64,000 bases of DNA from the NCBI GenBank assembly GCA_963565915.1, contig OY751495.1:3348001-3412000 (forward strand). Reading direction: 5' to 3'. Below are positions 23,622 through 56,071 of this stretch, one piece after another. Within the stretch, counting starts at the first letter, position 1, and every line of letters begins with the position of its first letter. A program made the position numbers and the translations under genes. The DNA comes from Entoloma clypeatum. Its lineage: Eukaryota; Basidiomycota; Agaricomycetes; Agaricales; Entolomataceae. A model generated the notes under the pieces. The model was not told the origin of the DNA and did no database searches. It saw only the letters and a program-made list of their open reading frames with translations.

Positions 23622-23812
23622 TGTAAGGGCAACCACTTTCACTTTTCACTTTTCCTTTCCTTTCTTCCTTTCCTTTCTATTCCACCATCTCCGATGTCCT
23701 CCGATCGTATCCGCTGTCTCCGACATCTTATCTGCCTCTCCACATCCAACAACTCCGCCCCCATCCGCTACTCTGCATGTCGGATTGCAGGTACTATCAT
23801 TCATCTTGTTTC

Positions 23813-24058
23813 TGTTAAAAGATGTGACCAGACTGGGGTTTGAACCCAGGACCTCCTGGATATATACCAAGTGCTCTAACCAACTGAGCCACCAGGTCTT
23901 CTGGGATTCAACTTGGATAGTACTCCATCTCACTCAACAATAGTACAACCACTGCAGTATCAACATGACAAATGCTCAACCTGAGCTAACCAATTCAGGC
24001 AACTTGCAAATATGGCATGCATCCAATATGAGTTCTGTGGCATATTACTAATCCAACA
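23813..24058 (-). repeat. 3' LTR of the mini element (minus orientation)
   Basis: 246 bp. It differs from the other copy at two sites (A/C and T/C). Confidence 0.9.
23825..23898 (-). tRNA. tRNA-like sequence in the mini element LTR (nominal anticodon UAU)
   Basis: A 74-nt cloverleaf can be drawn: acceptor GACCTGG/TCTGGTC (one mismatch, one GU), D stem GCTC/GAGC, anticodon stem CTTGG/CCAGG with loop TATATAT, a 5-nt variable loop, T stem CTGGG/CCCAG with loop TTCAAAC. Box A TGGCTCAGTTGG and box B GGTTCAAACCC fit Pol III consensus. A run of four T follows after CACATC. Position 33 is A instead of the invariant U, so decoding activity is doubtful. Confidence 0.6.
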
Positions 24059-24104
24059 CTACCACCTAATCTGCCACATCTTACTAAGCAGGCTGCTTGA
24101 AGCA

Positions 24105-24119
24105 CCGGGGCCCATAACC
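24105..24119 (-). other. PBS of the mini element (half initiator tRNA-Met type)
   Basis: GGTTATGGGCCCCGG on the minus strand directly follows the LTR. Its complement contains CCCATAACC, the anticodon loop of initiator tRNA-Met. The same 15 bases occur in copia G at 56072-56086. Confidence 0.75.
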
Positions 24120-24365
24120 TGTTAAAAGATGTGACCAGACTGGGGTTTGAACCCAGGACCTCCTGGATATATACCAAGTGCTCTAACCAACTGAGCCACC
24201 AGGTCTTCTGGGATTCAACTTGGATAGTACTCCATCTCACTCAACAATAGTACAACCACTGCAGTATCAACCTGACAAATGCTCAACCTGAGCTAACCAA
24301 TTCAGGCAACTTGCAAATATGGCATGCACCCAATATGAGTTCTGTGGCATATTACTAATCCAACA
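24120..24365 (-). repeat. 5' LTR of the mini element (minus orientation)
   Basis: 246 bp, adjacent to the primer-binding site at 24105-24119. Confidence 0.9.
24132..24205 (-). tRNA. Second copy of the LTR-borne tRNA-like sequence
   Basis: Identical to the copy at 23825-23898, as expected for the other LTR of the same element. Confidence 0.6.
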
Positions 24366-24484
24366 GTTTCCATTCATCCTTCATCGCTACTCCCGATCAT
24401 TGCTCATCATTCATGTGTCTCGTTTTATCTCTTATTTCATATCTCATTTTACTATTTATCTCGCTAGCTTGCAGGGGAATCCTT

Positions 24485-29771: not shown

Positions 29772-29797
29772 GATGCCGTGCCTTGAAGGGGGGGTGA

Positions 29798-30217
29798 TGT
29801 AAGGGCAACCACTTTCACTTTTCACTTTTCCTTTCCTTTCTATTCCACCATCTCCGACGACCTCCGATTGTATCCGCTGTCTCCGACATCTTATCCGCCT
29901 CTCCGCATCCGACGACTCCGCCCCCATCCGCTACTCCGCACGTCAGATCACAGGTACTATCATTCATCTTGTTTCCATTCATCCTTCATCGCTACTCCCG
30001 ATCATTGCTCATCATTCATGTGTCTCGTTTTATCTCTTATTTCATATCTCATTTTACTATTTATCTCACTAGCTTGCAGGGGAATCCTTAGAACTTTCTC
30101 TTCAGATCTCCCTTGCAAGGTGTGTGTTGTATTACTTATCAGACTGCTCAATCTAAACTTCGGATCTCCCTTGCAAGTATCTGAGTTCGAGTCTTGGATC
30201 GTAAGGTCGCCCTTACA
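29798..30217 (+). repeat. 3' LTR of gypsy B
   Basis: 420 bp, TGTAAGGGC to GCCCTTACA. It abuts gypsy D sequence at 30218. Confidence 0.92.
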
Positions 30218-51663: not shown

Positions 51664-54600
51664 TCAGAGTTCCGCATTGGGTTCATCTTCGGATGCCATG
51701 GGTTTGTAGCCCGTAGGGAGTGGGGTATGGGTTGCATTGGATTCACTCATCCCCATGCGTGTGAGTATTTTCTCAAGGTAAGGTACTTGATCAATGAAGA
51801 TCCTCTTCCCACGTTGCCTTATTTGGATAGAGAGAAATTCTTTCGGTTCCCCATCAGGCACAAGGTGCCCTAGGTCCCTACATTCCCATGTGGTCATGAA
51901 GGCCTTTTTCTTCTCTAGCGTGTATTCTCGGTTTGTGCCGAGAAAAGCAGAGTCGTCGACATATATGACGGCGATTACAATTTCCCCTTTGGTACTTTTG
52001 TGAATGAACACTCCCGCATCAGAGTGAAGCCGGACAAAGCCGAGCTTTTTCATGGAGGAATCAAGTTCCCTCCACCAGGCTAATGCGGCCTGCTTAAGTC
52101 CATATAGAGCTTTGAATAGTTGGTACACGAGGTGCTCTTTCCCTTTTACTATGTAGCCCTCAGGCTGTCGCATGTAAATGACTTCTTGGAGCGTTCCATA
52201 GAGGAAGGCTGATGAGACGTCCAACAGTGTCATGAACCACCCTTCAAGGGCTGTCAATGCCAGTATCAGTCGGACGGTTTCATATCTTACGACTGGTGAG
52301 AAGATCTGATCAAAGTCGATCCCTTCCACCTGCGAGAAGCCTTTTGCGACAAGGCGCGCTTTCAGACGCCCGTCGGATTTTTCGTTATAAACCCATTTGT
52401 TCCTTAGGGCTTTCCTCCCTGCAGGCAGGGGTACTAGCTCCGTGATCACCCCGCGGCGTTTGAGCATGTCTAGCTCTTTACGTTCAGCCGCATACCAGTC
52501 TTCTTTATTTGGAAGAGGGTATATGTCTTTATGGGACATTTCAACGATGCCAACTTGGGCTGATATCGCCTCCATCAGGAGGTCATTCATCCATGCCGTT
52601 TGACCGCCCAATCTCCGTCTTCGATCTAATTTTTCAAGATCAGACGCTGGAGTGTCTTCCCCATAGATGCTTCCTGGCATCTTCCGAACTCGTCGTTCCC
52701 TGATCGGTCGATCTGGTACTTGCTCGGGTTCCGGAGTGGGTACTCGTGGTTCGTCATCAGGCTCACTGGCAGGTAGTTCGTTGTCTGATTCAGGTTGATC
52801 CTGTTCAATGGGAACTGAGTCCTGAGGTGTTTCATTGTGACTATCGTCGTCGTTGCTGCCAGGGATGAGATCCTCAAACTCATCAGCCGGCTCTGGGTTT
52901 TCCATTTCTGGATGGTTTTCTGGCAAAGGGTCGATGTGGCATCTAGGGTACTTGCTTTCATCAAAGATAGCTTTCCCACCCATGAAAATCGTGTTAGTCT
53001 CAGGATCCATGAAGCGGTATCCTTTGACCCCTGGTTTTGATCCGAGATAAATCATCAATTGAGATCTTGACTCCAGGGAGTTTCTGCGTTTTTCTTTTGG
53101 GATATATACGTATGCTTGGCATCCGAAGACTCTGACGCTGGACAAGTCGGGGATCTCATTGGTCACCCTGAAATAAGGGGTTTTCCATTCAAGACGCCGC
53201 ATGGGGGTTCTGTTGTATAGAAATGCTGCATGTTCCAAACAGAATTCCCACCACATCGGCGGTAGACATGCGTCGAAACGCAATGCCTGAGATTTTTCCC
53301 ACAGAGTTCGATTTATTCGTTCTGCTCTACCATTCTGCTGATGCTGATATGGGAGTGTGACGTCGATCAGAATTCCATGATCGGCAAGTACATCCTTGTA
53401 TTCATCGAATTCTCCACCTCCATCAACCCGCCATTTTTTAGGGGTGGCGGCGAATTGATTCTGGATCATCGCAAGGAATTGTTTCAGCGCCGTGATGGCG
53501 CCTGACTTTTTCCTAAGCAAGACGACCCAGACATGGGAAGAAAAATCATCCAAAAAGGTAAGGAAATATTTGTACTTGTGGTACGATGCCGTGGATATCT
53601 GTTTCAAGTCCGAATGGATCAAATCAAAGGGTTCGACAGCCCTTGTCACCGAGTTAGGGTAAGATTGATTCGGCATTTTCCCTTTTAGACACCCCATGCA
53701 GCTTTCCTGTGATTTCTCACGTACTAACGTTTTGGGTACTCCTTTGGTACTGGTGGGAATCTTATTGAGCGCCTGGTCATTTGGGTGGCCAAGGCGTTTA
53801 TGCCAGGTTTCAACAGTGATTTCGCTAGAGATCGCGTGGATTTGGTCATAGCGTATTTCAGTGTCTAACCAATAAATGGTTTGTCCGATGAAATGAGGCG
53901 AAAACTGTATTTTGTTCAGCCCTTTAGAGATATTAATTTCTCCACGCATTCCATTAACTTTGTAACCATGGTTAAGGAAGACGCCTAGGGACAGTAGACG
54001 TGTGTCCATATCCGGAATATAAAATACCGGTCGTAGGAGATGGGTTTTAGTTTCCCCATCTAGGGTATGCCGTACTGGAACGGCCCCAACTCCGAGAATT
54101 TCCAGTTTCTTTCCCTTTGCAGCTGTTTGGACAAATCGCTTAGCCTTGAGAGGCCTGTAATACGCGAAGTCTTTGAACTCATGGGTAAAGTGTAATGATG
54201 CGCCGGAATCTAAGATCCACTGAGCGCGTTCTCTCTCTTTGCAGTGTGTGCAGGACGCGGAATGTTTGATATATTTTTTGTACAGATCATCACTAAAGAG
54301 ATCTATACTATCTGCATCGGTACTAGCTAATGTGTATTCAAACGTCTGTGCGTGATTATTAGCGTTTCCCATTTGGTCAAGTTTGAGAGAAGGATGTGAC
54401 GAACCGTCAAGTTCGATCAGCCCATCCTCGAACTGTTCCGGCCCCATTCGCTCGCTTTGATGGTCTATGTCCATCATCCCTAGCGATTCTTCTATCGACG
54501 GGGCTACGCGACGCTGTTTAGCCGGCCTTTCATCGATTTCAGGAATGATGGTGTCTAGGATACGAAGATTCGATCCTGAGGGGTGAGCACCAATGCCGCG

Positions 54601-55725
54601 CGCGAGTTTGCGGACATGGTCGTTCTTTTTCCACACGGATGGTTTTCCAGAAGGAAGCCCGGTGTACTGTGACGGAGGGGGGTTCATTCTTTGCAGGAGC
54701 GACTGCATCTTTGCAGAATCGGGCTGTGCGGTACTTGTCGTTTTCCCGCGACCAGTGACGGTGGTGAAGGATGGCGGCGGAAGAGGAGGGAAGTGGATGG
54801 CGGGAGCAACAAACTCAACCGTTTCTTCCACATGGTCGGACGTGTTGTCCGCATTGTTAGCACTTTTCTTCTGATTTTGCCAACGTCCCTTTCCCTTCTT
54901 CTTCTCAGAAGCCGTACTTGGGTCGGCCGAGTTGGGCTGCTTGTCAGCATCGTTCTGCGAGGTACTTGGCTTCTGCTGCCTTTCCCATTTGGGGTCCTGC
55001 CCCTTTCGCTTTGTCCCGGAGATTTTCCGGGCCTGCTCGTTGGACGTACGAGTGGACCCAATCGAATACTTGCGCCGGTATTCTGATATGATGCTTTCCG
55101 CGACGGCTTTGTATGTGAAGTCGTCGGCGTCATAGACCTGAAAGAGGGCAGTGGAGAGTGACAACCAGGCGTCGGGAATTGCATTTGCCAGGATCATTGC
55201 CTGCATCAGATCGGGGACATCAAAGTTCGAATCGGCGAGCCGAGCGAAAAGAGACCCCAAGTGTTCAATTTCAGGGACGGGGTCACGTCCAGAGAGCTTG
55301 TAGGTGGCGGCGGCCTTGAAGTCGCCGAAGATGACGGCCGGGGATACCTTGGAGTAGGCATCTTTTAATGACTTCCAGGCGTCTTTTGAGGAAGTGGCGT
55401 CCTTGATGTGGCGTCTGATCGCCTCGGAGACCTTCAGGCGTATCGCCCCAAGAGCTACGTCGTCGTCCCTGATCCAGGCTTTTTCTTCCTTGCGGAAGCC
55501 GGGCTGGTCGACCGTGGTGGCCAGCACAGGGGGAGCAGTAGCAGTGGCCCCAGGGGTGGAGACTGTGGTGGTGAAGTCGGCGATGACAGGGCGGGGGATG
55601 TCGCCAGAAACAAGGCGCCAGACTCCTTGATGGAGGAGGTAAGACTTCATTTTTTCGGCCCAGCTCCGGTAGTCGATGCCATCAAAGGCAGTGATTGTGT
55701 CGAGGGCAGAACGAGAGGTAGACAT
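51664..55725 (-). CDS. Copia G Gag-PR-IN-RT polyprotein
   Basis: 1,353 codons from MSTSRSALDTITAFDGIDYR to a TGA after DEPNAEL. The Gag part (about residues 1-230) is of the copia UBN2 type without a CCHC knuckle, followed by a Lys/Ser/Asn-rich linker. Protease QWILDSGASLHFTHEF lies at about 520. Integrase zinc region is WHKRLGHPNDQALN and CMGCLKGKM; the core is LIHSDLKQ, WRVDGGGEFDEY, YQHQQNGRAERINRTLWEKS. RT starts at about 1120 (LRNKWVYNEKSDGRLKARLV, GFSQVEGIDFDQIFSPVVRY) and has VIAVIYVDDSAFLG. The remaining RNase H continues in phase beyond the TGA (50998-51624). One C-to-T change (CGA to TGA) would explain the stop, so this copy was very recently active. Confidence 0.93.
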   Translation of the reverse strand: MSTSRSALDTITAFDGIDYRSWAEKMKSYLLHQGVWRLVSGDIPRPVIADFTTTVSTPGATATAPPVLATTVDQPGFRKEEKAWIRDDDVALGAIRLKVSEAIRRHIKDATSSKDAWKSLKDAYSKVSPAVIFGDFKAAATYKLSGRDPVPEIEHLGSLFARLADSNFDVPDLMQAMILANAIPDAWLSLSTALFQVYDADDFTYKAVAESIISEYRRKYSIGSTRTSNEQARKISGTKRKGQDPKWERQQKPSTSQNDADKQPNSADPSTASEKKKGKGRWQNQKKSANNADNTSDHVEETVEFVAPAIHFPPLPPPSFTTVTGRGKTTSTAQPDSAKMQSLLQRMNPPPSQYTGLPSGKPSVWKKNDHVRKLARGIGAHPSGSNLRILDTIIPEIDERPAKQRRVAPSIEESLGMMDIDHQSERMGPEQFEDGLIELDGSSHPSLKLDQMGNANNHAQTFEYTLASTDADSIDLFSDDLYKKYIKHSASCTHCKERERAQWILDSGASLHFTHEFKDFAYYRPLKAKRFVQTAAKGKKLEILGVGAVPVRHTLDGETKTHLLRPVFYIPDMDTRLLSLGVFLNHGYKVNGMRGEINISKGLNKIQFSPHFIGQTIYWLDTEIRYDQIHAISSEITVETWHKRLGHPNDQALNKIPTSTKGVPKTLVREKSQESCMGCLKGKMPNQSYPNSVTRAVEPFDLIHSDLKQISTASYHKYKYFLTFLDDFSSHVWVVLLRKKSGAITALKQFLAMIQNQFAATPKKWRVDGGGEFDEYKDVLADHGILIDVTLPYQHQQNGRAERINRTLWEKSQALRFDACLPPMWWEFCLEHAAFLYNRTPMRRLEWKTPYFRVTNEIPDLSSVRVFGCQAYVYIPKEKRRNSLESRSQLMIYLGSKPGVKGYRFMDPETNTIFMGGKAIFDESKYPRCHIDPLPENHPEMENPEPADEFEDLIPGSNDDDSHNETPQDSVPIEQDQPESDNELPASEPDDEPRVPTPEPEQVPDRPIRERRVRKMPGSIYGEDTPASDLEKLDRRRRLGGQTAWMNDLLMEAISAQVGIVEMSHKDIYPLPNKEDWYAAERKELDMLKRRGVITELVPLPAGRKALRNKWVYNEKSDGRLKARLVAKGFSQVEGIDFDQIFSPVVRYETVRLILALTALEGWFMTLLDVSSAFLYGTLQEVIYMRQPEGYIVKGKEHLVYQLFKALYGLKQAALAWWRELDSSMKKLGFVRLHSDAGVFIHKSTKGEIVIAVIYVDDSAFLGTNREYTLEKKKAFMTTWECRDLGHLVPDGEPKEFLSIQIRQRGKRIFIDQVPYLEKILTRMGMSESNATHTPLPTGYKPMASEDEPNAEL

Positions 55726-56071
55726 TGTGAATGAATCTAAAAAGGGTTCTCAATCAGTGATGTGTTATGAATATGATTCGAGAAAACAATTGAATGATTC
55801 CTTATGACATATTCCCTTCAGGAATAGCGGTCATGGGAAAACCCTTTATATGTCAGAAACGTATAAGGTGCGATCAACGTTTCCACATGGAGTGTACTAG
55901 GTCAATCCCCTTAGGGACGTCTCATGACAGGTACTTGTCGTAATGACGTTCCCAGGTTCATATGTGAAGAAGTATGACTCAGAACCTAGATCTTTCGATC
56001 GGTTCTTTGCCAACCAGGGTAGAGTGGGCAGGTACTCGCTGTTGCCAGCGTTTCCCAAGTCCCTCTGCTAT

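What the first reader, a model, noticed from the sequence alone, without database searches (positions are those of the whole stretch)
23813..24365. TRIM-like retrotransposon carrying a tRNA-like gene inside each LTR
Seen: two 246-bp LTRs with TGTT/AACA ends, a 61-bp interior, a primer-binding site flush with the LTR, and a 5-bp TSD (GTTTC). Each LTR holds a 74-nt cloverleaf with good A and B boxes and a TTTT terminator just before the LTR end, on the same strand as the PBS. Known: the plant TRIM Cassandra carries 5S rRNA promoters in its LTRs, and SINEs use tRNA heads. A tRNA-like cassette inside the LTR of a fungal TRIM would be a parallel invention that could provide Pol III transcription. 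I do not know of a described fungal case.
Basis: partly seen in the sequence, partly recalled or inferred. Interest (0 to 1): 0.9.

Follow-up and report, generated by a model that had tools for sequence, protein, structure and literature searches.

The report
Mini-retrotransposon with tRNA-like terminal repeats
In a genome that is very likely fungal, this is a 553-base jumping element without genes whose two end repeats each contain a tRNA-like sequence, which likely acts as its promoter, and which is probably moved by the enzymes of a larger Copia element; the kind was described in 2024 as Helenus, and one hybrid copy in this genome joins the two elements physically.

Summary
On the minus strand lies a 553-bp element: two 246-bp LTRs (2 differences), a 61-bp interior, a GTTTC target duplication, a tRNA-like block in each LTR (Rfam, 53.6 bits) and TTTT just before each LTR's final AACA. 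It sits in a Gypsy LTR; three other Gypsy LTR copies in the window show the empty site. The 60-Mb genome has at least 41 LTR and 4 interior matches; 14 of 21 complete solo LTRs have perfect 5-bp duplications. The kind is known: Kojima 2024 (PMC10886601) describes Helenus, in fungi too, with tRNA-like LTRs, anticodon-loop primer sites shared with Copia, and 5-bp duplications. Same here: the primer site fits spliced host tRNA-iMet and equals that of a resident Copia family. New here: one Copia copy on C10 holds the TRIM interior and LTR positions 1-238 after its primer site, target duplication intact; the joint falls exactly before TTTT. This supports movement by that Copia and hints that the RNA ends at a Pol III stop. 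Pol III transcription is untested, and the tRNA-like block is not more conserved than the rest of the LTR.

The parts
24120..24365 (-). 5' LTR (246 bp, TGTTGGAT...CTTTTAACA)
24059..24119 (-). interior, 61 bp, too short to code
   Evidence: 4 genomic matches
24106..24119 (-). primer-binding site GGTTATGGGCCCCG, complementary to 14 nt of the 5' half of host initiator tRNA-Met as spliced; same site in a resident Copia family
24059..24067 (-). weak polypurine-tract candidate AGGTGGTAG before the 3' LTR
   Evidence: read from the sequence; inferred
23813..24058 (-). 3' LTR (246 bp), 2 differences from the 5' LTR
24132..24206 (-). tRNA-like block of the 5' LTR (LTR positions 160-234; box A TGGCTCAGTTGG, box B GGTTCAAAC)
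23825..23899 (-). tRNA-like block of the 3' LTR
24124..24127 (-). TTTT in the 5' LTR, would-be Pol III stop; would have to be read through for a full-length RNA
23817..23820 (-). TTTT in the 3' LTR, would-be Pol III stop
23808..23812 (.). target-site duplication GTTTC, left copy
24366..24370 (.). target-site duplication GTTTC, right copy

Best explanation
The block at 23813-24365 is a 553-bp LTR retrotransposon without genes, built like the Helenus TRIMs, whose tRNA-like LTR blocks likely serve as RNA polymerase III promoters and which is likely moved in trans by a Copia family of the same genome. Likely cycle: Pol III would start at the tRNA-like block of the 5' LTR, read past the short TTTT there, and stop at the TTTT of the 3' LTR, so that the repeated (R) region of the RNA would be roughly the tRNA-like block. 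Copia proteins would package this RNA; the 5' half of spliced initiator tRNA-Met would prime at the site abutting the LTR; Copia reverse transcriptase and integrase would make and insert the DNA. Shown: the anatomy, the TSDs, the empty sites, the fit of the primer site to the tRNA, the same primer site in Copia, and a Copia/TRIM hybrid that has its own TSD. Inferred: Pol III transcription, the splice form of the primer, co-packaging, and the role of each enzyme.
For: LTR, interior and TSD anatomy. Empty sites in three other Gypsy LTR copies of the window. At least 41 LTR and 4 interior matches in the genome. Of 21 complete solo LTRs, 14 have perfect 5-bp TSDs against 14 of 8400 shifted controls; one more (L003) has one after allowing an 8-bp duplication of the LTR start. 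The C6 element has identical LTRs, so it is young. Box A is exact in 29 of 30 and box B in 28 of 30 LTR rows (one of the two misses is a truncated row); T4 in 28 of 30, the other two rows ending before it. Primer site: 14 nt complementary to host iMet across its intron position; pattern search found four such genes, each with extra bases after CATA, and three were read out. A Copia family with its own 326-bp LTR (0 ARAGORN calls in 4 loci holding Copia 5' ends) has the TRIM's 15-nt site GGTTATGGGCCCCGG in 4 of 5 non-hybrid copies read across that junction; the fifth has two changes, and a short fragment (L091) has it too. Hybrid C10:1819747-1825033: Copia LTR, primer site, TRIM interior, TRIM LTR positions 1-238, Copia interior from nt 25, Copia LTR; TSD TTTGC on both sides, LTRs differing at 1 of 326. 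One template switch from Copia RNA to the 3' end of TRIM RNA in a shared particle would give this order, and the joint abuts the TTTT at LTR 239-242. Pieces of another copy hit Copia gag, SH3-like and RVT_2 domains over their cut-offs, and Pol_BBD just under.
Against: No RNA data. The tRNA-like block is not more conserved than the rest of the LTR (12 of 75 against 20 of 171 variable columns in 27 copies, Fisher p 0.41), though the family is young. Its folding energy is ordinary. A T4 also follows the 5' block, so most Pol III transcripts might stop before the interior. Three of the four Ts belong to a TTTAACA end shared with the Copia LTR, so the T4 may exist for other reasons; the LTR piece inside the C11 composite lacks it (CTCATAACA). 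No clean polypurine tract. The hybrid is a single event, its position was judged after the fact, and TTTAAC in both parents leaves room for recombination plus a small deletion. TRIM and Copia LTRs are otherwise unrelated. Two of 21 solo LTRs (L011, L016) have no TSD, two (L027, L029) match at 4 of 5, and two (L009, L017) only through an inferred inversion. The C6 TSD lies in a TA repeat and is weak.
Confidence: 0.72

Rival explanations
1. It is the same TRIM moved by Copia, but transcribed by RNA polymerase II from LTR positions 1-159; the tRNA-like block is a passenger left by an old tRNA or SINE insertion.
For: The tRNA-like block is not more conserved than its surroundings. A T4 in the 5' LTR would stop many Pol III transcripts. 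The cloverleaf is degraded: one non-standard acceptor pair, A at position 33.
Against: Boxes A and B are exact in 29 and 28 of 30 rows. A second family in the genome with an otherwise unrelated LTR also carries a tRNA-like block. The hybrid joint abuts the T4.
Confidence: 0.25
2. The C10 hybrid formed at the DNA level, by recombination at the shared primer site plus a small deletion, and says nothing about RNA ends or shared particles.
For: The usual TRIM and Copia copies share 22 bp there (TTTAACA plus the 15-nt site) and TTTAAC near the other joint. The C11 composite also seems to need a DNA-level exchange (inferred).
Against: It needs two events, and the TRIM LTR lacks its last 8 nt, including the AACA end that an integrated TRIM would have. 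One template switch would give the whole order, and the hybrid has matching TSDs and near-identical LTRs.
Confidence: 0.3
3. A true tRNA-Ile gene pair, or a tRNA gene cluster, rather than a transposon.
For: ARAGORN calls tRNA-Ile and Rfam tRNA.
Against: LTR structure, TSD, empty sites and dispersed copies. Among 18 host tRNA loci compared, the nearest are tRNA-Ile(AAT) genes with at most 58 identical positions of 75.
Confidence: 0.01

Closest known systems
Helenus (Kojima 2024, Biology 13:119, PMC10886601; main text parts 1-5 of 6 read)
   Same: TRIM with a tRNA-like sequence in each LTR, GGTTC box B, primer site complementary to a tRNA anticodon loop (spliced iMet is the dominant type in fungi), 5-bp TSD in fungi, primer site shared with Copia, Agaricomycete hosts on record.
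   Different: Here a Copia/TRIM hybrid links the element to a Copia of its own genome; the paper's interior similarity was between Copia-9_PGr of P. graminis and LTR-1_PTrit of P. triticina. Whether this exact family is in its Table S1 or in Repbase could not be checked.
Cassandra (plant TRIM with 5S rRNA in its LTRs; taken from Kojima's introduction)
   Same: A block derived from a Pol III gene in both LTRs of a short gene-less element; transcription from one LTR into the other.
   Different: 5S rRNA instead of tRNA; plants; transcripts are on record for Cassandra, none here.
Drosophila copia and yeast Ty5 anticodon-loop priming (cited in Kojima 2024)
   Same: Primer site complementary to the anticodon region of a tRNA.
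   Different: Those elements code for their own proteins (recalled).
tRNA-derived SINEs (Kojima's introduction)
   Same: A tRNA-like promoter block on a short non-coding retroelement.
   Different: No LTRs, no primer-binding site; moved by non-LTR retrotransposons.

Membership tests
Helenus (TRIMp3) | Two LTRs, short, no coding capacity | tested here: met
   553 bp, 61-bp interior
Helenus (TRIMp3) | tRNA-derived sequence with boxes A and B in each LTR | tested here: met
   Rfam 53.6 bits in both LTRs; boxes exact in 29 and 28 of 30 rows
Helenus (TRIMp3) | Primer-binding site next to the 5' LTR, in most fungal families complementary to a tRNA anticodon loop | tested here: met
   14 nt complementary to host iMet as spliced
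Helenus (TRIMp3) | Polypurine tract before the 3' LTR | tested here: inconclusive
   only AGGTGGTAG, by eye
Helenus (TRIMp3) | 5-bp TSDs (fungal families) | tested here: met
   window element and 14 of 21 complete solo LTRs
Helenus (TRIMp3) | Primer site shared with a Copia element (fungal families) | tested here: met
   same 15-nt site in 4 of 5 non-hybrid Copia copies; a Copia/TRIM hybrid
Helenus (TRIMp3) | Transcription by RNA polymerase III | not testable with these tools
   no RNA data; the paper calls it unproven for Helenus too
Cassandra | 5S rRNA-derived LTR sequence | tested here: not met
   at gathering scores Rfam finds only the two tRNA matches in the window
tRNA-derived SINE | No LTRs and no primer-binding site | tested here: not met
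   LTRs, primer site and 5-bp TSD present

The most novel reading that the evidence does not exclude
The C10 hybrid is a fossil of one template switch inside a shared particle, from Copia RNA onto the 3' end of a Pol III-made TRIM RNA: it names the working partner of a tRNA-LTR element in its own genome and marks the RNA's end at the Pol III stop, the first physical trace, as far as my searches reach, of Pol III-driven LTR retrotransposition outside Cassandra.
Probability: 0.42. Interest if true: 0.6.

Novelty: new member of a known kind. Interest (0 to 1): 0.42.

Why it matters
Elements of this kind inflate tRNA gene counts: 28 of the 63 tRNA matches scored in this genome (63 of 2495 candidates) lie in LTRs of two such families. 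It is open how a Pol III transcript can serve an LTR life cycle and which element moves it. A partner in the same genome plus a hybrid whose joint abuts the predicted RNA end makes both questions directly testable.

Tried and rejected
Considered and rejected: a real tRNA-Ile gene pair (differs from the host tRNA-Ile genes compared; dispersed with TSDs). An autonomous Copia that owns the tRNA-like LTR (first suspected at C11:2643234-2647829, L079): a 326-bp Copia LTR lies inside that composite and bounds other copies, so the composite reads as Copia nested in a TRIM LTR at GTTGA with the 5' junction exchanged later; the nesting order and the exchange are inferred. Higher conservation of the tRNA-like block: tested, not found. 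Folding energy as support: none. A first iMet pattern without an intron gap found nothing; with a gap it found four places. The BLAST printed nothing and was rerun. LTR matches of the second family 4.5 kb apart on C13 were suspected to bound an autonomous partner; the first is a solo LTR with TSD CCTGA and the sequence between is Gypsy-like. A search of the plasmid collection with the element found nothing. Rows dropped: TSDs were scored on the 21 complete solo LTRs among the 41 matches; truncated pieces, the two full elements and the composites were left out of that count. Conservation used 27 of the 30 aligned rows. 18 loci of the 63 scored tRNA matches were compared with the tRNA-like block. 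Supplementary files of the 2024 paper were not looked at.

Full report
OBSERVATION. On the minus strand of 23813-24365 lies a complete small LTR retrotransposon: 5' LTR 24365..24120, interior 24119..24059, 3' LTR 24058..23813. The LTRs differ at 2 of 246 positions. The TSD is GTTTC. ARAGORN and Rfam each find a tRNA-like block in both LTRs, on the element's sense strand. The element sits in an LTR of a Gypsy element; the matching LTR at 29795-30175 and two more Gypsy LTRs in the window (45700-45303, 40029-39635) run straight through the site with one GTTTC.

COPIES. The 246-bp LTR has at least 41 matches in the 60-Mb genome (the tool calls such counts lower bounds) and the interior 4. Two complete elements are clean: the window's and C6:2150517-2151069, whose LTRs are identical and whose TSD lies in a TA repeat. 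Of 21 complete solo LTRs, 14 have perfect 5-bp TSDs (shifted control 14 of 8400). L003 has one after allowing an 8-bp duplication of the LTR start. L009 and L017, in opposite orientation and 1095 bp apart, carry swapped half-TSDs that an inversion between them would explain. L027 and L029 match at 4 of 5, L011 and L016 not at all.

THE tRNA-LIKE BLOCK. It occupies LTR positions 160-234; TTTT is at 239-242 and the LTR ends at 246. Box A is exact in 29 of 30 and box B in 28 of 30 rows; the T4 is present in 28 of 30, the two others ending before it. An LTR piece inside the C11 composite, not among the 30, has lost the T4. The nearest of 18 host tRNA loci compared is a tRNA-Ile(AAT), 58 identical positions. 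The cloverleaf has one non-standard acceptor pair and A at position 33, so use in translation is unlikely. The block is not more conserved than the rest of the LTR (12 of 75 against 20 of 171 variable columns in 27 copies, p 0.41). This gives no support for selection on the promoter; the family is young, so it is a weak test.

PRIMER. A pattern search found four initiator tRNA-Met genes in the host, each with extra bases after CATA that fit an intron; three were read out. The site GGTTATGGGCCCCG is complementary to 14 nt of the tRNA as spliced, across the splice point (inferred from the usual tRNA intron position). That points to the 5' half of mature iMet as primer. The 2024 paper reports the same for the dominant type of fungal Helenus.

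PARTNER. A Copia family here has 326-bp LTRs unrelated to the TRIM LTR except for the last 7 nt TTTAACA. Its primer site equals the TRIM's 15-nt GGTTATGGGCCCCGG in 4 of 5 non-hybrid copies read across the junction; the fifth has two changes, and a short fragment has it too. A copy at C11:1148222-1153215 has TSD CTTTC and stop-to-stop frames of 841 and 486 codons. Pieces of the C11:2643234 copy hit Copia gag, SH3-like and RVT_2 domains, and Pol_BBD just under its cut-off.

HYBRID. At C10:1819747-1825033 the order is Copia LTR, primer site, TRIM interior, TRIM LTR 1-238, Copia interior from nt 25 on, Copia LTR, with TSD TTTGC and 1 difference in 326 between its LTRs. One switch of the reverse transcriptase from Copia RNA to the 3' end of TRIM RNA, followed by plus-strand transfer on the shared primer site, would give this order. 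The joint falls exactly before the TTTT, where a Pol III transcript would end. It is one event, and the position was judged after the fact; five of 246 positions (238-242) would have looked as good. A DNA-level route (recombination plus a small deletion) remains open.

MECHANISM. Best reading: Pol III transcription from the 5' block with read-through of the first T4 and stop at the second; iMet half-tRNA priming; reverse transcription and integration by Copia proteins. Transcription and packaging are inferred. The T4 in the 5' LTR is a real difficulty: the element's only two T4 runs are one per LTR.

KNOWN KIND. Kojima 2024 (PMC10886601; main text parts 1-5 of 6 read) describes Helenus with these marks, the polypurine tract being the one not clearly met here. 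A 2026 meeting report names Helenus once in its text (passages seen). In the held open-licence library, searches for Helenus with TRIM terms, for TRIMp3, and for Helenus with LTR retrotransposon from 2024 on showed no further study of these elements. So this is a new member of a known kind; the hybrid with a Copia of the same genome is the new part. Whether the family itself is already in Repbase was not checked.

Noticed in passing
L036-L039, L044, L045, L055; C11:4584016-4584296 and others: A second LTR family (255 bp, TGTTGGAG...CTCAACA) with a tRNA block 29 bp from its start, called Leu(GAG) by ARAGORN but Glu-like by eye: 18 matches, perfect 5-bp TSDs in 6 of 6 copies scored, the truncated L044 left out. 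Its LTR resembles the first family's only in the tRNA-like part. No interior was seen in the copies read.
   Followed up: partly
L079 335-4930 (C11:2643234-2647829): Composite: TRIM LTR, Copia interior, Copia LTR, TRIM LTR positions 121-246, TRIM interior, TRIM LTR, with outer TSD GTTAA. Best read as Copia nested in a TRIM with its 5' junction exchanged later.
   Followed up: partly
L017 and L009 (C8:3634703-3636289): Two oppositely oriented solo LTRs with swapped TSD halves, as an inversion between them would leave.
   Followed up: partly
L041, L077 and L050: tRNA-Ile(AAT) variants on C13 and C6 that share flanking sequence, possibly a small duplicated or mobile unit.
   Followed up: no
window 51664-55749: A Copia-like frame of 1361 codons without a stop on the minus strand; its LTRs and primer site were not examined.
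   Followed up: no
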